Shown here: piece after piece, positions 6,713-17,539 of the stretch
How positions within the stretch are numbered: position 1 is the stretch's first letter
Layout of the letters: the number at the start of each line of letters is the position of its first letter
DNA from: a virus
Length of the DNA: 20,723 bases
IMG/VR virus record: IMGVR_UViG_3300033053_000054
Location: 1-20,723 of that record
Reading direction: 5' to 3' (one strand)
Translations under genes and position numbers: made by a program
The notes under the pieces: generated by a model
Told to the model about the DNA's origin: nothing
Seen by the model: the letters and a program-made list of their open reading frames with translations, nothing else
Database searches by the model: none

Positions 6713-7118
6713 ATTCGATTTCCTCACCGTGAGGTACGGCTTTTTGTGCAGGGCATTTAGAACAAACGAACGTCCGATGACCATCACCACTTGCCGTTGC
6801 TTCTTGCCAACTGTGTTGGCATATTTTCGGAGTCGATTTTTGATCCGACGAAAGAAGGAACATCAAACAGCAAATCGCATGAGCCAAATGCGGTTCGTTC
6901 GTTTCGGGATCATTTACTTGTCCATTCCACCAGGCATCTAAATGGCGGTGCGCTGCATCGAAATAGCGGGTACGTGCATTGGGTACAAAACGCCAGTTAT
7001 TTTCTGAATATTTTTTTGCACCAAATTCCAGAACATTTACGACTGGTGTTAAAACACCGTTGGGAATTAAAGAGAATCGAGGTTTATTGCCATCAAATTT
7101 TTGACCGTTTTCATTCAT
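6705..7118 (-). CDS. dATP/dGTP diphosphohydrolase-like protein with C-terminal zinc ribbon
   Basis: A 137-residue protein. Residues 5-90 (KFDGNKPRFSLIP, LEFGAKKYSENNWRF, RYFDAAHRHLDAWWNG, HLAHAICCLMFLL) match the dATP/dGTP diphosphohydrolase N-terminal family (also known as DUF5664), a MazG-like all-helical nucleotide-hydrolase fold. Candidate metal ligands are Glu31, His57, Asp61, Glu75 and His77/His80. Such enzymes adjust phage nucleotide pools, and relatives serve phages with modified adenine. Residues 100-122 add C-x-H-x-W and C-x2-C, a likely zinc ribbon not needed for the core. The ATG overlaps the cro stop by 8 bases and its own stop overlaps the next gene by 8. No purine-modifying gene is visible in this window, so a modified genome cannot be claimed. 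Confidence 0.82.
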   Translation of the reverse strand: MNENGQKFDGNKPRFSLIPNGVLTPVVNVLEFGAKKYSENNWRFVPNARTRYFDAAHRHLDAWWNGQVNDPETNEPHLAHAICCLMFLLSSDQKSTPKICQHSWQEATASGDGHRTFVCSKCPAQKAVPHGEEIEYE

Positions 7119-7377
7119 GCGCCAATTCCTTCTTTTTGCCTTTCACCTTGACCGGATTGCATTCCGCAAGAATCCATTCACGATCAAATCTCCCCCCACT
7201 TGCTACCGCCAAAGCACCTGCATAATCCGTTTCACCTGTGTAATCAGTCCTTGGCAAGTGCTGCTTCTTGATCCATCGGCCGATAATCGCCGGGGTCACA
7301 TCACAAGCGGCGCCCGCCAAAACCTGTCCTCCAATTTCTCGAACCACACGAGCTAAAGGCGTTTCATCTTCAAACAT
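7111..7377 (-). CDS. Cro-like / YdaS-type helix-turn-helix regulator
   Basis: An 88-residue DNA-binding protein. Residues 8-42 (LARVVREIGGQVLAGAACDV then TPAIIGRWIKKQHLP) form a helix-turn-helix of the Cro/YdaS kind, followed by a short segment around an acidic TDYTGETDYAGA stretch and a basic tail (KVKGKKK). It is the first gene of the minus-strand early operon and diverges from the repressor gene, the classic position of Cro, which represses the repressor promoter and directs lytic growth. The ATG has AAGGGAT upstream. Operators at 7424-7436 and 7483-7495 are its probable targets, shared with the repressor. Confidence 0.8.
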   Translation of the reverse strand: MFEDETPLARVVREIGGQVLAGAACDVTPAIIGRWIKKQHLPRTDYTGETDYAGALAVASGGRFDREWILAECNPVKVKGKKKELAHE

Positions 7378-7400
7378 CGAAAAGTATCCCTTGATTGTTT

Positions 7401-7413
7401 ATACATTAAATAT
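7401..7413. promoter_or_regulatory. Degenerate operator copy in the cro leader
   Basis: ATACATTAAATAT differs from the ATAC-N5-GTAT operator pattern at one half-site base. It lies between the cro promoter and the cro start. Possibly a weak third site of the switch region. Confidence 0.3.
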
Positions 7414-7420
7414 AATTAAT

Positions 7421-7448
7421 CTTATACCATTGGTATGAATCAAAACAA
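7421..7448 (-). promoter_or_regulatory. cro promoter with embedded operator
   Basis: On the minus strand TTGTTT (7448-7443) and TATAAG (7426-7421) are spaced by 16 bases. The perfect palindrome ATACC-ATT-GGTAT (7424-7436) covers the spacer and -10, so a bound repressor would block this promoter. It matches the sites at 7483, 8734, 8769 and 8801. Confidence 0.6.
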
Positions 7449-7482
7449 CCCGGCCGTATACAATTTTTTATACTAAAGTGTT

Positions 7483-7498
7483 ATACATAAGGTATAAT
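7483..7498 (+). promoter_or_regulatory. cI promoter -10 overlapped by an operator
   Basis: TATAAT at 7493-7498 is a perfect -10 box on the plus strand; no good -35 is present, as is common for activator-dependent or maintenance promoters. ATACATAAGGTAT (7483-7495) overlaps it and matches the operator pattern, suggesting autoregulation or Cro repression. Confidence 0.5.
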
Positions 7499-7540: not shown

Positions 7541-8638
7541 ATGGCAGATATTTCTGGCGAAGATTTTGAAAAAGCTCTGATTGAAGAATTAGGCCAAGAT
7601 AAAAATAACACCACTAAAATTACTTTTACAAAAACATTGAATGCTAATGACTTCAAAGACTTAAGTGATGATATTAAAGAAGTATCTTCAACTATCACAA
7701 TCACGATCCACCCTATTGCTCAGCGCATCCAATCTGCTATGGAATATAAGTCCAAAAAAGATGGAATAAAGCTCAGCTGGAACGGCCTGTCACAAGCATT
7801 GGAAATGTCTCCAGGAGCACCAACAAACTGGAAGAAAGGGAAAGTCAGCAAGGAAACTTTAGAAAAGATTGCTGAATATACTGGCGTCGAATTTGCATGG
7901 CTAGTCACCGGCGAAGGTGAAATGACAAAGCAAGTAAATAATGCACGAGCGGCATTAGGGATTGTCACAAGCACCGGACTCGGTGGAATGGCTGCCGGTA
8001 TAGTTTCAGGAACAGCTCTTGCCGGGCCTATCGGATTAGCTGCAGGGGCAATTGCTGCGACAGCGTTTGACGTAATAGGTAAAAAACTTAGTAAGACCCG
8101 CTTGCAAAATGCTATTGAGCAATTAGAAAATGAAGATCCAGATTTGGTCAGTGAAATAAAGCAAGATGTTGAAAATGCTGTAGAAAAGAAATTGACTGAA
8201 AATATTAATAACGTCCAAAGAATCCAAGAAAGTAGTATTAGACTCGTGCCACTTATAAGCCTTGTTCAAGCCGGAAGTTTTAGAGAAGCGATCTTAAACG
8301 CTCAAGATGAATACGTTGCTACCTATGCCGGAGATTTAGGGGCATATGCTTTCGCCCTGGAAATCGTGGGGTACAGTATGTTTCCGGAGTTTAAGCCAGG
8401 CGATAAAATTATCGTAGATCCTGACGTAAAGCCGATGCCGGGGGATTATGTTATTGCTCAAAACGACGGTGATGAAGCTACCTTTAAAAAATATAAACCT
8501 CGGGGTTTCGATGAAAATGGACGCGAGTATTTTGAATTAATTGCTCTTAACGAAAACTATCCTAACTTTGATTCCAGATTTCAAAAACTAAAAATCATTG
8601 CAACCGTAACCGATCATATTAGAAGTTTAAGACGATAA
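7541..8638 (+). CDS. CI-like phage repressor, S24/LexA peptidase fold, with Gly/Ala-rich insert
   Basis: A 365-residue lysogeny repressor, longer than the usual 200-240. Residues 1-55 are an acidic extension without known domain. Residues about 57-125 are the DNA-binding domain (IAQRIQSAMEYK, GLSQALEMSPGAPTNWKKGK, GVEFAWLVTGEGEM). Residues 137-180 are an uncharged Gly/Ala-rich hydrophobic stretch, then an acidic helical linker (183-230). Residues 236-365 are the LexA-like autoprotease: cleavage site Ala244-Gly245, catalytic Ser279 (GYSMFP) and Lys316 (ATFKKY), the same 37-residue spacing as LexA. RecA-stimulated self-cleavage would induce the prophage. The ATG has AAAGGA 7 bases upstream; a GTG at 7478 is rejected because it lies in the promoter. 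A terminator follows directly. Confidence 0.92.
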   Translation: MADISGEDFEKALIEELGQDKNNTTKITFTKTLNANDFKDLSDDIKEVSSTITITIHPIAQRIQSAMEYKSKKDGIKLSWNGLSQALEMSPGAPTNWKKGKVSKETLEKIAEYTGVEFAWLVTGEGEMTKQVNNARAALGIVTSTGLGGMAAGIVSGTALAGPIGLAAGAIAATAFDVIGKKLSKTRLQNAIEQLENEDPDLVSEIKQDVENAVEKKLTENINNVQRIQESSIRLVPLISLVQAGSFREAILNAQDEYVATYAGDLGAYAFALEIVGYSMFPEFKPGDKIIVDPDVKPMPGDYVIAQNDGDEATFKKYKPRGFDENGREYFELIALNENYPNFDSRFQKLKIIATVTDHIRSLRR

Positions 8639-8680: not shown

Positions 8681-8733
8681 ATTGTCTATATAAAAATAAA
8701 TTTATTTTCATATCAAATGTTTATAAAAAATTC

Positions 8734-8813
8734 ATACTTTAAGTATAAATTTTTATTGACGTTTATTCATACCCAAGTATATATTTGCCCCATCAAGTTC
8801 ATACTTAAGGTAT
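8734..8813 (+). promoter_or_regulatory. Promoter of the plus-strand early operon with three operators
   Basis: TTGACG (8756-8761) and TATATT (8780-8785, spacing 18; or TATATA with spacing 16) form a strong sigma70-type promoter. Three palindromes surround it: ATACTTTAAGTAT (8734-8746), ATACCCAAGTAT (8769-8780, one base shorter) and ATACTTAAGGTAT (8801-8813), each preceded by TTC. The third contains the AAGG that also serves as ribosome site for the gene at 8820. The arrangement recalls a lambda operator triplet but in front of the operon that does not start with cro. Confidence 0.8.
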
Positions 8814-8819
8814 AAATAA

Positions 8820-9248
8820 ATGAGTTTAGAACAAGCACTCCAAGAAAACACCGCTGCGGTAAATCGCCTTGCGGAACTGTTAGCAGCACAGCAACAACCC
8901 GTTGTGCTTAAAGTTGAAACCGTTCCTGAAATTGCGAAAAAGGCAATTGCGAAAGCTGTTGAAAATACAGCTCCGGTAATTGAAGCAGCTGCAGAAACTG
9001 CGGTTGAAGTAGAACAAAGCAGCCAGGCGCGTGACGAACTGCAAGACGCAGAAAAAACTGAAGCCAAAGCTGCCCCTACTGCGGATGACGTCAAAGCAGC
9101 GTTAATGGCAGTTGCTAAAAAATCCCGCAATGACGTTCAAAAAATCCTCCAGCATTTTGGTGCTGCCAACCTTTCTGGCCTTAAAGCGGATGATTACGAA
9201 CAGGTAATCAAAATGGCTGAAGAAGCACTGGAGACGACAGATGCCTAA
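8820..9248 (+). CDS. Conserved small phage protein, first gene of the replication operon
   Basis: A 142-residue protein rich in Ala and Glu. Residues 1-25 (MSLEQALQENTAAVNRLAEL) look like a short coiled coil. The middle (35-88) is low-complexity Ala/Glu/Val. The C-terminal domain (90-137, DDVKAALMAVAKKSRNDVQK, then a Gly-containing turn and LKADDYEQVIKMAEEAL) is a compact helical unit that I have seen in other phage proteins of similar build, without an assigned function. Its position ahead of the nuclease/SSB genes suggests a replication or recombination accessory. The ribosome site AAGG is inside the operator at 8801-8813, so a bound repressor could only act on DNA, but the leader is very short. 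Confidence 0.75.
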   Translation: MSLEQALQENTAAVNRLAELLAAQQQPVVLKVETVPEIAKKAIAKAVENTAPVIEAAAETAVEVEQSSQARDELQDAEKTEAKAAPTADDVKAALMAVAKKSRNDVQKILQHFGAANLSGLKADDYEQVIKMAEEALETTDA

Positions 9249-9417
9249 TAACAATTTAGATCGCGTTTGCGTTAAGCGTCTGAAAGCGGATGACTTTGCC
9301 CAAGACGATCTTGACTACGTGCCGACCAGCAAATTTGAAATCGTTTTAATGATCATCCTTGCTGTATTAACTGTCCTTCTTTTTGCTTGCTATGCATATA
9401 ACGAACTTTTTGCATAA
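9241..9417 (+). CDS. Small single-pass membrane protein
   Basis: A 58-residue protein starting MPNNNLDRVCVKRLK. Residues about 32-52 (FEIVLMIILAVLTVLLFACY) form one clear transmembrane helix, with a charged N-terminal half and a very short C-terminal tail, so it is probably an inner-membrane protein with its N-terminus inside. Its ATG overlaps the preceding stop by 8 bases, indicating coupling. Small one-helix proteins in this position of phage early operons have no agreed role; superinfection exclusion or membrane anchoring of replication are possibilities without evidence here. Confidence 0.7.
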   Translation: MPNNNLDRVCVKRLKADDFAQDDLDYVPTSKFEIVLMIILAVLTVLLFACYAYNELFA

Positions 9418-12838: not shown

Positions 12839-14905
12839 ATGCAACTCGAACTATTCCTCGACCTCGAAACCTACTGTGAAACGCCAATTAAAAACGGTAC
12901 GCACGCCTACAGCGAAAACGCTGAAGTGATGATTTTCGCCTGGGCTTTAAACGATGGCGAAGTGCACGTTGAAGATTTAACAGCAGCACCGATGAGCAAA
13001 GAGCTAGTTGCCCTTTTGCACAACCCATCTGTAAAGCTCATTGCTCACAATTCTGGCTTCGACCGTACTGTTTTACGCTATGCAATGCCCCAGTACGATC
13101 TGAAAATCGAACGTTGGGAAGACACGATGGTTCAAGCATTAAGCCATTCACTACCTGGTGCATTAGGCTCACTTTGTGAAATCTTCAACATTGACCAGGA
13201 CAAAGCAAAAGACAAAGCCGGTAAGCAATTAATTCAGCTGTTCTGCAAACCGCAACCTGCAAACCGCAAAGAGCGTCGTGCTACCCGGGAAACACATCCT
13301 GAAAAATGGGCTGAGTTTTTGGCATATGCAAAAAACGATATTTTGGCTATGCGTGAATTGCGTAAAAAGATGCCGAAATGGAATTACCGCAATTCGGAAT
13401 TAGCACTCTGGCATCTGGACCAGAAGATTAACGACCGAGGCGTGTGCATCGATCTTGACCTCGTTCACTGTGCGATTGAAGCGGTAGACAGAGCGCAAAA
13501 AGGTTTAGCAAAACAAACGAAGGAAATGACCAATGGCGAAGTCGAAGCTGCCACTCAACGAGATGCAATGCTCAAGCACATCCTTAACGCTCACGGAGTT
13601 TCTTTGCCTGACATGCAGAAATCCACCCTCGAGCGACGCCTTAATGATGATTCGCTCCCTATTGCAGTCCGAGAACTTCTTGCAATCCGGTTGCAAGCAT
13701 CGACTACGAGTACGGCCAAATACAAAGCGCTTGCTCTTGGTACAAACACCGATGGGCGACTCCGCGGAACTTTACAGTTCAATGGCGCGAGCCGCACGGG
13801 ACGCTGGGCAGGACGTCTATTTCAACCGCAGAATCTACCTAGACCGGCTTTAAAACAGTCTGTAATTGATGAAGGCATTGAAACTTTAAAGATCGGCTGC
13901 GCCGACCTGTTCTATGAAAACGTCATGGAACTGACTTCATCTGCTATCCGTGGATGCATCCAGGCCCCTGAAGGCAAAAAGCTTTGCATCACAGACTTAT
14001 CAAATATTGAAGGTCGCGGTTTGGCTTGGCTTGCCGGTGAAGAATGGAAAAACCAAGCCTTCCGTGATTTTGACAATGGCACCGGGCATGACCTTTATAA
14101 ATTGGCATATGCAAAATCTTTTGGCGTATCCCCGGAAAACGTAGACAAAGAACAACGCCAGGTCGGTAAGGTCCAAGAACTTGCATTAGGTTATGAAGGC
14201 GGCGTTGGTGCATTCCTGACTTTCGCATCCGCATATGGTTTAGACCTCGATGCAATGGCAAACCAAGCGATTGACAATATCGACCAAGGCATCATGAACG
14301 AAGCAATTCGCGCATGGGAATGGCATAAAAAAGAACGTCGCAATACTTTCGGATTGAAACGCGAAACCTGGCTTGTATGCGATTCGTTTAAACGCTCATG
14401 GCGTTATGCACACCCGAACATCTCCGCATGGTGGTCAGAATTAAAGAACACAGCAATTTTAGCTTTGACCAATCCAGGTAAGGCATATCCATGCCGCAAA
14501 GTGTTCATGATGAAAAAAGGCTCTTGGCTTTTAATCAAACTGCCGAGCGGTCGCTTCCTTTGTTACCCAGGTGCACGTGCGGAAGACGATGGCCGTATCT
14601 CATACATGGGAAATAACCAGTACACCCGCAAATGGGAAAGACTTTATACCTACGGCGGGAAATTAGCCGAGAACATCACACAGGCATTTTCACGTGACGT
14701 ACTGGCTTACAACATGCCGGAAATTGAATCTGAAGGTTATGAAATCGTTTTGTCTGTTCACGATGAAGTAATTACCGAAGCACCAGATTCACCCGAATTT
14801 AATCACGAACACTTATCAAAACTGCTTGCGACCAATCCCGAATGGGCCAGCGATTTGCCATTGGCGGCAGCCGGTTTTGAATCTTACAGATATAAAAAGG
14901 ACTAA
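12839..14905 (+). CDS. Family A DNA polymerase with 3'-5' exonuclease domain
   Basis: A 688-residue phage replicative polymerase of the Pol I family, without the 5'-3' nuclease domain. The DnaQ-like proofreading domain is intact: LDLETY (Asp8, Glu10), AHNSGFD (Asp75) and YAKND (Tyr163, Asp167). The polymerase domain shows GASRTGRW with QPQNLPRP (317-335), motif A ITDLSNIEGR (Asp386), motif B RQVGKVQELALGYEGG (Arg440, Lys444, Tyr452) and motif C SVHDEV (His641, Asp642). All catalytic residues are present. It should extend primers made by the Prim-Pol/helicase of the opposite operon. GAGG lies 10 bases before the ATG. The next gene starts 5 bases after its stop. Confidence 0.95.
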   Translation: MQLELFLDLETYCETPIKNGTHAYSENAEVMIFAWALNDGEVHVEDLTAAPMSKELVALLHNPSVKLIAHNSGFDRTVLRYAMPQYDLKIERWEDTMVQALSHSLPGALGSLCEIFNIDQDKAKDKAGKQLIQLFCKPQPANRKERRATRETHPEKWAEFLAYAKNDILAMRELRKKMPKWNYRNSELALWHLDQKINDRGVCIDLDLVHCAIEAVDRAQKGLAKQTKEMTNGEVEAATQRDAMLKHILNAHGVSLPDMQKSTLERRLNDDSLPIAVRELLAIRLQASTTSTAKYKALALGTNTDGRLRGTLQFNGASRTGRWAGRLFQPQNLPRPALKQSVIDEGIETLKIGCADLFYENVMELTSSAIRGCIQAPEGKKLCITDLSNIEGRGLAWLAGEEWKNQAFRDFDNGTGHDLYKLAYAKSFGVSPENVDKEQRQVGKVQELALGYEGGVGAFLTFASAYGLDLDAMANQAIDNIDQGIMNEAIRAWEWHKKERRNTFGLKRETWLVCDSFKRSWRYAHPNISAWWSELKNTAILALTNPGKAYPCRKVFMMKKGSWLLIKLPSGRFLCYPGARAEDDGRISYMGNNQYTRKWERLYTYGGKLAENITQAFSRDVLAYNMPEIESEGYEIVLSVHDEVITEAPDSPEFNHEHLSKLLATNPEWASDLPLAAAGFESYRYKKD

Positions 14906-14909
14906 TGAA

Positions 14910-15728
14910 ATGAAGCACATTATTTGCTACTCCGGGGGACACAGCAGCGCACTGGTGGCGATTGAGGTAACACGTCGTTTCGGGAAGGAAAATGTAATCC
15001 TCGTAAATCACGACATTAATACAAATGTCGAGCTGCCGGACGTAAAACGTTTTAAGAAGAGCATCGCTCAGTATCTAGGATTGCCGATTACTTATGTGAA
15101 TATCCAAGGTCTCGAAGCAAGTGAACTGCCGGATCAATTCGAAGTAGTCAAAAAAGCAAAGGCGTTTAAGGTCGGCAACGGCACGGAGCTGTGCACAAGC
15201 CGCCTTAAAACAGAACCTTTCGTGAATTACTTGAATCAGAATTTTCCAAATAAAAATTGCGTTATCTATTACGGATTTGATGCGGAGGAAAAAGACAGGA
15301 TTCAGCGCCGATCAAGCATTTTGGCATCTATGGGGTATAGATCCGAATTCCCTTTAGCTTTTTGGAAAGAACGGACAATTTTCCAAACTATCGAGGTCGG
15401 CATCAACCCCCCAGCTCAGTACGACCAATTCAAGCATGCAAACTGCATTGGTTGTCTAAAAGCGGGCCGTCAACACTGGTACATCGTTTACTGCCAAAGA
15501 CCAGACATCTTTGCCAAGGCCAAGGATGCAGAGGATTACATCGGGTATTCCATCGATCCTGATTTCTACTTGGACGAGATGGAAGAAAGTTTCGAGAAGA
15601 TGAAACAGGTAGACATCCCCCAGACTGAACACATTAAACACCAGACATTCTGGGCCAAGGTAAGAAAAGCAGGAATCAACCTGCCGGAAGATGCCAGAGC
15701 CAAAAGACCTTGTGAGTGCGTTTTTTAA
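14910..15728 (+). CDS. PAPS reductase / PP-loop family protein
   Basis: A 272-residue protein with the PP-loop ATP-pyrophosphatase motif YSGGHSSA (7-14) near its start, as in phosphoadenosine-phosphosulfate reductases, DndC and QueC. Other features are an LVNHDINT strand end, ELCTSRLK (Cys95) and Cys pairs C179-x2-C182 (NCIGCLKAG) and C268-x-C270 at the C-terminus (RPCECVF), possibly an Fe-S or zinc site. Phage members of this family lie in replication or modification modules and their substrates are mostly unproven; adenylation-driven modification of a nucleotide, or sulfur transfer, is possible. The true start (14910) follows AAAGGA at 8 bases; earlier in-frame starts lie in the polymerase. 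Confidence 0.85.
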   Translation: MKHIICYSGGHSSALVAIEVTRRFGKENVILVNHDINTNVELPDVKRFKKSIAQYLGLPITYVNIQGLEASELPDQFEVVKKAKAFKVGNGTELCTSRLKTEPFVNYLNQNFPNKNCVIYYGFDAEEKDRIQRRSSILASMGYRSEFPLAFWKERTIFQTIEVGINPPAQYDQFKHANCIGCLKAGRQHWYIVYCQRPDIFAKAKDAEDYIGYSIDPDFYLDEMEESFEKMKQVDIPQTEHIKHQTFWAKVRKAGINLPEDARAKRPCECVF

Positions 15729-16233: not shown

Positions 16234-16950
16234 ATGGGCCGTTCTTTTGCATACTCAGATGAAGAACTTCGGTTTCTAAAAGCAAATTGCAAAATGCTAC
16301 GTAATGAATTGCATGCTCAATTTCAAGAAAAGTTCAACCGCGAAGTGACATTGGCCGCGTTGAATTCAGTGTGCAAAAGAAACGGATGGCATTCAGGGCG
16401 TAAATCAAAAGGCGGCTCGCATTACGCACCTGAAGTCATCCAGTTCATTAGTGATAACCGCGCAATGCCACGTGAAGAATTGAAAGATATGGTAAATGCA
16501 AAATTTAATCTCGATATGACCTACAAAGGCCTTACTAGCCTTTGTCGTCGCCAAAGATTTACTACTGGTCGTAAAGGTCATTTCGGTGAGCATGACGGAT
16601 GGCGTCAAAGCGTTCAATTCAAAACGCAGCCGATCGGGTATGAAACAAGGCCCGACAAACGTGGCCGTGTTTACGTCAAAGTTGCAATGCCAAGTGAATA
16701 CCGCTTAAAGCACCACGTGATCTGGGAACAGCATTTCGGACTTATCCCTGAAAACCACGTGATTGTCTTTAAGGATGGTGATGACACCAATTTTCACCCG
16801 AACAATTTAATCGCGGTTCACCGCGGCGCAATTGGCACATTGAACCGCAGATACAAGCCTCAACAAGCGGATAAAGAAATCAAGCCATTGCTTTTAACCA
16901 TGGCGCAAATTGACCACAAGATTTACCAGAAGGAAAACGCAAATGCCTAA
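16234..16950 (+). CDS. HNH-like protein with two N-terminal DNA-binding repeats
   Basis: A 238-residue protein. Residues 7-58 and 63-114 are two copies of one module (Y-x-E-E, FL or FI, N, M-x-R-x-E-L, F-x-x-KF, then CKR or CRR and a GRK end), likely helix-turn-helix DNA-binding units. Residues about 145-205 resemble the HNH_3 domain: KHHVIWEQHFG (His160, His161), IPENHVIVFKDGDD and FHPNNLIAVHRG. The position where HNH_3 proteins have the first catalytic His (V-x-H-x-D) carries Phe179, so nuclease activity is doubtful. GGAGG lies 7 bases before the ATG. The next gene is a paralogue that starts within its last codons. Confidence 0.82.
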   Translation: MGRSFAYSDEELRFLKANCKMLRNELHAQFQEKFNREVTLAALNSVCKRNGWHSGRKSKGGSHYAPEVIQFISDNRAMPREELKDMVNAKFNLDMTYKGLTSLCRRQRFTTGRKGHFGEHDGWRQSVQFKTQPIGYETRPDKRGRVYVKVAMPSEYRLKHHVIWEQHFGLIPENHVIVFKDGDDTNFHPNNLIAVHRGAIGTLNRRYKPQQADKEIKPLLLTMAQIDHKIYQKENANA

Positions 16951-17539
16951 AGGAATCCGCTTGGTTTATACCGATGAAATGGTTGCATTTCTGCATGAAC
17001 ATAAAACCATGCTTCGTGAAGAAATGGCCTCTCTTTTCAATGAGAAGTTTGGGACAAATATCTCAACGGATAGCGTAAAAGCAAAATGCTTACGCATGGG
17101 ATTAAAGACAGGTCGAACAGGACGAATTGAAAAAGGCAATAAACCTTGGAATACCGGCACAAAAGGCTTAATGAAAGCCAATGTGACTACCTTCAAGAAA
17201 GGAAACAAACCTTGCAATGTAAAACCCGTCGGCTATGAGCGAATCACTAAAGACGGCTACATCGAAGTGAAAATTTCCGAACCGAATGTCTTTGAAATGA
17301 AGCACCGCCACATATGGCAACTTGCACATGGCCCAATTCCAAAAGGTCATGTAATCGTTTTCAAGAATACGAACAAACAAGATTGCCGGATTGAGAATCT
17401 GGAAATTATCACTCGCGGTGAACTTGCCCGATTAAACCAGTCTTATAAACACCTGGTTACACCAGAAACAAACGAAGCGTGTGTAACTATGGCAAAAATC
17501 AAGCACCGCGTACACCAATTTGAAAAAGGAAATATTTAA
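16943..17539 (+). CDS. HNH-like protein, paralogue of the preceding gene
   Basis: A 198-residue protein with one copy of the N-terminal module (VYTDEMVAFLHEHKTMLREE to TGRTGR, residues 7-55), a basic linker with two KGNKPWN/KGNKPCN repeats, and a C-terminal HNH_3-like domain (MKHRHIWQLAHGPIPKGHVI, then VFKNTNKQD and ENLEIITRGELARLN). As in its neighbour, the canonical first HNH His is replaced by Phe. Tandem duplication of the ancestral gene followed by loss of one module is the simplest history. The ATG overlaps the previous gene by 8 bases with AAGGA upstream. It may be a homing-type nuclease, an inactive DNA binder or a regulator. Confidence 0.82.
   Translation: MPKGIRLVYTDEMVAFLHEHKTMLREEMASLFNEKFGTNISTDSVKAKCLRMGLKTGRTGRIEKGNKPWNTGTKGLMKANVTTFKKGNKPCNVKPVGYERITKDGYIEVKISEPNVFEMKHRHIWQLAHGPIPKGHVIVFKNTNKQDCRIENLEIITRGELARLNQSYKHLVTPETNEACVTMAKIKHRVHQFEKGNI

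What the first reader, a model, noticed from the sequence alone, without database searches (positions are those of the whole stretch)
7950..8100. CI-type repressor with a 44-residue glycine-zipper-like hydrophobic insert
Seen: residues 137-180 of the 365-residue repressor are uncharged until near the end and full of Gly/Ala with G-x3-G-like spacing, long enough for one or two membrane helices, placed between the helix-turn-helix domain and an intact S24 autoprotease domain (Ala244-Gly245, Ser279, Lys316). Known: lambda CI and LexA relatives have a short polar linker here. Inference: the insert could tether the repressor to the membrane, form an oligomerisation bundle, or add a second function (such as membrane activity after cleavage releases the N-terminal part, giving abortive infection or exclusion). 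The extra 55-residue acidic N-terminus is also unusual.
Basis: partly seen in the sequence, partly recalled or inferred. Interest (0 to 1): 0.62.

Follow-up and report, generated by a model that had tools for sequence, protein, structure and literature searches.

The report
Phage repressor with hydrophobic hairpin insert
A virus integrated in Acinetobacter bacteria keeps itself dormant with an otherwise standard lambda-type repressor that carries a rare, evolutionarily maintained oily segment between its DNA-binding and self-cleaving halves, which may let the repressor touch the cell membrane or stick to copies of itself; I found no report that anyone has tested this.

Summary
Window 7541-8635 (+) encodes a 365-aa CI-type repressor (HTH about 58-128, S24 autoprotease 237-356 with Ala244-Gly245, Ser279, Lys316). 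Residues 137-176 are 40 consecutive uncharged residues, 53% Gly+Ala. It is the immunity repressor of a lambda-like switch: six 17-bp palindromic operators flank the gene, three on each side, next to a divergent cro-like gene in an Acinetobacter prophage.

The insert is real and rare. Among 104 distinct S24 repressors surveyed, only this one and three relatives (30-69% identical; all Acinetobacter or its close phages), plus one frame-broken relative, carry it. Related prophages with the same cro-like gene have a short polar linker instead. It is under purifying selection (dN/dS 0.14-0.40). Composition and the uncharged helix-turn-helix layout are conserved; strict GxxxG spacing is not.

What it does is undecided. 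Hydropathy is borderline for a membrane helix and AlphaFold gives no confident fold. I favour a cytoplasm-facing membrane hairpin (0.42) over a soluble self-association module (0.33). Release of a membrane-active fragment by cleavage is disfavoured: the most distant relative keeps the hydrophobic segment but has lost the cleavage site and apparently the catalytic lysine. New variant of a known kind.

The parts
7541..8635 (+). CI-type immunity repressor, 365 aa (stop 8636-8638)
7541..7711 (+). Acidic N-terminal arm, residues 1-57; variable in length and sequence between relatives
7712..7924 (+). HTH domain, residues 58-128; shared with many Acinetobacter prophage repressors
   Evidence: pLDDT 84-90 over residues 61-120
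7949..8080 (+). Gly/Ala-rich hydrophobic insert, residues 137-180; probable helix, Gly-Pro turn (162-163), helix
8081..8236 (+). Charged helical stretch after the insert, residues 181-232; basic at its start (K181, K182, K185, R187)
8237..8635 (+). S24 autoprotease/dimerisation domain, residues 233-365; cleavage A244-G245, S279, K316
7399..7415 (.). Operator-like 17-bp palindrome, left cluster, site 1
7422..7438 (.). Operator-like 17-bp palindrome, left cluster, site 2
7481..7497 (.). Operator-like 17-bp palindrome, left cluster, site 3
8732..8748 (.). Operator-like 17-bp palindrome, right cluster, site 1
8766..8782 (.). Operator-like palindrome, right cluster, site 2
8799..8815 (.). Operator-like 17-bp palindrome, right cluster, site 3
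7111..7377 (-). Divergent cro-like regulator gene, 88 aa (weak YdaS / phrog_35 match); about 70% identical in both insert-bearing and insertless relatives

Best explanation
The gene encodes the lysogeny (immunity) repressor of a lambda-like switch in an Acinetobacter prophage. It binds six palindromic operators on both sides of its gene and is inactivated by RecA-stimulated self-cleavage at Ala244-Gly245. Between its DNA-binding and dimerisation/protease domains it carries a maintained Gly/Ala-rich helical hairpin. I think the hairpin most likely associates shallowly with the cytoplasmic face of the inner membrane, entering and leaving on the same side so that both functional domains stay in the cytosol, which would concentrate repressor and prophage at the membrane. 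SHOWN by sequence: domains, catalytic and cleavage residues, operator-like sites, conservation and rarity of the insert. INFERRED from the family: operator binding and RecA-stimulated cleavage. INFERRED, weakly: helical hairpin and membrane contact.
For: S24 fold and residues. Six operator-like sites in two clusters: 11 strand matches against 0.43 expected; similar palindromes stand upstream of L003 and L041. Insert present in L003, L041, L053 and L098 and absent from about 100 other S24 repressors. dN/dS in the insert 0.14 (window/L041) to 0.40 (window/L003), with diverged synonymous sites. An uncharged run of 29-40 residues is kept down to 30% overall identity. A central Pro-Ile turn (GPIG, APIG, GGPIL) is kept in 4 of 5; basic residues lie on both flanks in most copies, which fits two cytoplasmic ends. 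The fragment model is helix-turn-helix, at low confidence. The Gly/Ala composition and energy resemble a Dot/Icm OmpA-family protein matched by the profile, and the top PDB-profile matches include the membrane-inserting paddle region of a bacterial dynamin (E 0.06; paddle role: PMC6715688).
Against: Hydropathy only reaches the classical threshold (KD19 1.25-2.05; summed dG +2 to +5), well short of a normal TM helix (-4.5) or the dynamin paddle (+0.3). The legs are 14-24 residues, short for two full spans. Shuffled inserts match the dynamin-like LeoBC profile as well as the real one (best 4.9e-4 against 4.3e-4), so that resemblance is composition plus the charged coil. AlphaFold gives pLDDT 22-30 in the insert. 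No paper on a membrane-bound phage repressor was found, but the library is partial.
Confidence: 0.42

Rival explanations
1. The insert is a soluble (or only incidentally hydrophobic) self-association module: small-residue helices from several subunits pack with the following charged helix, strengthening cooperative operator binding without any membrane contact.
For: Marginal hydropathy; an adjoining charged helix 187-229 is predicted and conserved (63-69% identity); two clusters of three operators imply cooperative binding.
Against: 40 consecutive uncharged residues with no polar helix face (hydrophobic moment 0.03 in leg 1) is atypical for a soluble bundle; AlphaFold finds no packed domain.
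Confidence: 0.33
2. The insert is a nearly neutral low-complexity spacer, tolerated but not needed.
For: Insertless relatives with the same cro-like gene exist (L004, L058). The insert is less constrained than HTH or S24, and its GxxxG spacing is not conserved.
Against: dN/dS 0.14-0.40 with diverged synonymous sites; not one charge has entered the core in five diverged copies.
Confidence: 0.13
3. The N-terminal fragment set free by autocleavage is membrane-active and causes exclusion or abortive infection.
For: After cleavage at 244-245 the insert would remain with the HTH on a 244-residue fragment (for the sequence; family knowledge for the cleavage).
Against: In L098 the Ala-Gly site reads Leu-Val and the aligned catalytic Lys reads Gly, yet the hydrophobic segment is kept. 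No second effector domain is found, and the insert is marginally hydrophobic.
Confidence: 0.06
4. The insert is a recognition element for a membrane or AAA protease (such as FtsH), tuning repressor turnover.
For: An exposed hydrophobic stretch in a regulator whose level sets the lysogeny decision; otherwise general knowledge only.
Against: No direct evidence; such elements are usually short and terminal.
Confidence: 0.06

Closest known systems
Lambda CI / LexA-type S24 repressors (Pfam PF00717; PDB 2ho0, 8gmu, 3bdn)
   Same: HTH plus S24 domain, Ala-Gly cleavage site, Ser-Lys dyad, S24 fold match E 1.7e-9, two clusters of three operators
   Different: Extra Gly/Ala-rich insert of about 44 residues, a long charged helix, and an acidic N-terminal arm of about 57 residues
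Insertless repressors of sister Acinetobacter prophages (L004, L058)
   Same: Same position and cro-like neighbour (68-69% identical), S24 domain 52-59% identical
   Different: Short polar linker, no hydrophobic segment, no long arm
L098 repressor-like protein of an Acinetobacter integrated island
   Same: HTH 48% identical, hydrophobic Gly-rich segment at the same place
   Different: Shorter segment; S24 domain 30% identical with the cleavage site and aligned Lys replaced; island also carries candidate defence genes
Membrane-inserting paddle hairpin of bacterial dynamin-like protein (PDB 2j68; PMC6715688)
   Same: Gly-rich hydrophobic hairpin with a GPIG-like turn, followed by a charged helix
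   Different: No significant homology (E 0.06-0.27), clearly more hydrophobic, unrelated protein context
Glycine-zipper/OmpA-like lipoproteins (NCBIfam TIGR03789, NF053611)
   Same: Similar Gly/Ala-rich composition over the insert (E 0.0013 and 0.12)
   Different: Far below the curated cut-offs; exported envelope proteins, not DNA-binding regulators

Membership tests
CI/LexA-type S24 autocleaving repressor | N-terminal HTH DNA-binding domain | tested here: met
   Phage_CI_repr just under its cut-off (21.7 of 22 bits); phrog_4 repressor E 5e-37; confident helices 58-123 in the model
CI/LexA-type S24 autocleaving repressor | S24 domain with Ser/Lys dyad and Ala-Gly cleavage site | tested here: met
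   PF00717 E 4e-18; A244, G245, S279, K316 invariant in the 13-sequence alignment; fold match to lambda CI
CI/LexA-type S24 autocleaving repressor | Multiple palindromic operators at the promoters flanking the gene | tested here: met
   Six sites in two clusters
CI/LexA-type S24 autocleaving repressor | RecA-stimulated cleavage and operator binding in vivo | not testable with these tools
   Needs biochemistry
Membrane-anchored transcription regulator | Transmembrane or membrane-inserted segment | tested here: inconclusive
   Borderline hydropathy; low-confidence models
Membrane-anchored transcription regulator | Experimental membrane localisation | not testable with these tools
   Needs fractionation or microscopy
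Glycine-zipper domain | Regular GxxxGxxxG repeats beyond composition | tested here: inconclusive
   Above composition only in L041 (p 0.008); window p 0.30; no Pfam glycine-zipper match
Bacterial dynamin paddle | Significant sequence relationship beyond composition | tested here: not met
   E 0.06-0.27 in the PDB; shuffled inserts score as well on LeoBC

The most novel reading that the evidence does not exclude
A lambda-type lysogeny repressor that is tethered to the inner membrane by a built-in hairpin, so that prophage silencing and SOS induction take place at the membrane: a membrane-tethered CI repressor.
Probability: 0.35. Interest if true: 0.68.

Novelty: new variant of a known kind. Interest (0 to 1): 0.42.

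Why it matters
Lambda-type repressors are textbook soluble cytosolic proteins. A subfamily that maintains a hydrophobic insert between its two halves suggests that some prophages link immunity to the membrane or use a different assembly mode. Sister prophages with the same cro-like gene but an insertless repressor offer a ready-made comparison.

Tried and rejected
Searching with the repressor or its insert alone found no insert-bearing relative in viral, genome or phage collections; relatives were found through the neighbouring DNA polymerase. No significant homologue of the insert was found elsewhere in 176 Acinetobacter genomes: one weak hit lies in a sigma-54-type response regulator, read as chance. 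A Rossmann-like GxGxxG reading was rejected: the motif is not conserved and the alcohol dehydrogenase matches are insignificant. A dynamin-paddle relationship was first suggested by LeoBC and BDLP matches, then rejected as homology because shuffled inserts match LeoBC as well. The PDC-M09A match (8.5e-6 against a best of 8e-4 in 11 insert-only shuffles) is unexplained and was not pursued. Other S24 proteins with apparent hydrophobic stretches that were checked were stop-to-stop artefacts upstream of the likely start codon. Literature searches found no membrane-bound phage repressor.

Full report
What is there. The window is a 20,723-base viral contig. Its DNA polymerase is 80-91% identical to Acinetobacter prophages and about 66% identical to Bordetella phage BPP-1, so it is an Acinetobacter-type prophage. 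The repressor gene occupies 7541-8635 on the + strand (365 aa) behind a good ribosome site. Pfam finds Peptidase_S24 at 237-356 (E 4e-18) and a sub-threshold Phage_CI_repr HTH at 76-128; PHROGs files it as a repressor, E 5e-37. A244-G245, S279 and K316 are invariant across the S24 alignment, and the AlphaFold model's S24 half matches lambda CI and LexA (E down to 1.7e-9).

It is the immunity repressor. Three 17-bp palindromes (7399, 7422, 7481) lie between it and a divergent cro-like gene, and three more (8732, 8766, 8799) lie downstream before the rightward operon (11 strand matches against 0.43 expected for the main pattern). This mirrors lambda's two clusters of three operators. Similar palindromes occur upstream of the repressors of L003 and L041.

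The insert. Residues 137-176 are uncharged and 53% Gly+Ala. The same segment occurs in L003 (68% identical overall), L041 (69%), a frame-broken copy in L053, and, shorter, in the distant L098 (30%). In a survey of 104 distinct S24 repressors with enough upstream sequence, only the four intact ones had such a stretch inside the protein; the other apparent cases checked lie upstream of the likely start codon. A profile of the HTH plus insert found one insert-bearing case in 176 Acinetobacter genomes (L098 itself) and none in 369 gammaproteobacterial genomes. The survey is biased towards relatives of the query, so the rarity figure applies to this neighbourhood.

Selection. Pairwise dN/dS in the insert is 0.14 to 0.40 while synonymous sites are strongly diverged; HTH and S24 are more constrained, the N-terminal arm much less. 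So the insert is maintained, mainly in composition: GxxxG spacing exceeds expectation in L041 only.

Evolution. The same cro-like gene (68-76% identical) accompanies both insert-bearing repressors (window, L003, L041, L053) and insertless ones (L004, L058). In the HTH tree the insert-bearing proteins, L098 included, fall on one side, with weak support (0.59-0.72), whereas the S24 domain of L098 is distant. This suggests that the insert travels with the DNA-binding module. L098 has Leu-Val in place of Ala-Gly and Gly at the aligned catalytic Lys, although a neighbouring Lys remains and the alignment is imperfect, so loss of cleavage there is likely, not proven.

Structure and membrane. The full-length model is confident for HTH and S24 but has pLDDT 22-30 in the insert, with only three insert sequences in the alignment. 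A fragment model gives helix 127-156, a break, and helix 165-182, mostly at pLDDT below 50. Hydropathy is at the classical threshold, and the summed biological-scale energy is +2 to +5 kcal/mol, against -4.5 for a likely TM protein in the window, +0.3 for the dynamin paddle and +3.8 for a glycine-rich OmpA-family protein. The energy is a plain sum without position weights, using residue values from memory of the published scale. Profile matches to the dynamin paddle (2j68), LeoBC and glycine-zipper lipoproteins are weak, and shuffling the insert leaves the LeoBC score about as good. These matches show the kind of composition, not descent.

Verdict. The membrane/oligomerisation reading is plausible and undecided. 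A single membrane crossing would put the S24 domain in the periplasm, away from RecA, so a same-side hairpin is the only membrane topology consistent with function (family knowledge). I prefer shallow membrane association (0.42) to soluble self-association (0.33). The released-effector idea is unlikely. No membrane-bound phage repressor was found in the open literature library, which is partial.

Noticed in passing
L199 5891-16094 (G078:C29), around L098: Integrated island with integrase, PLD-like protein, the insert-bearing repressor-like gene, DUF3631 primase-like gene, Vsr endonuclease and a three-gene candidate defence system matching PDC-M33A/B/C (E 9e-100, 1e-34, 2e-30); its repressor appears to have lost the autocleavage residues.
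   Followed up: partly
window 14874-15725 (+): Gene matching SspD of DNA phosphorothioation systems (PADLOC E 1.6e-17) inside the phage; among related prophages only L022 has a close copy (74%).
   Followed up: no
window 9241-9417 (+): Small protein with one very hydrophobic segment (FEIVLMIILAVLTVLLFACYAY) just downstream in the rightward operon; weakly similar ORFs in L003, L041, L004 and L058, with and without the repressor insert.
   Followed up: partly
L053 2570-3565: Repressor gene read in four overlapping frames over 1 kb: either a decayed gene or sequencing errors.
   Followed up: no
window 16234-16950 and 16910-17539 (+): Two adjacent ORFs that look like paralogues of each other by eye (shared repeat-like N-terminal pattern and an HNH-like tail) in the rightward operon.
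   Followed up: no
window 7946-8209 (P0001 residues 136-223): Insert plus following helix match candidate defence family PDC-M09A (E 8e-6 to 8e-5; L041 7e-6), about 100-fold better than the best of 11 insert-only shuffles; meaning unknown.
   Followed up: partly
NZ_CP064203.1 and NZ_CP104448.1 (plasmid collection; L118): Records of about 4 Mb listed as A. baumannii plasmids that are presumably mislabelled chromosomes.
   Followed up: no
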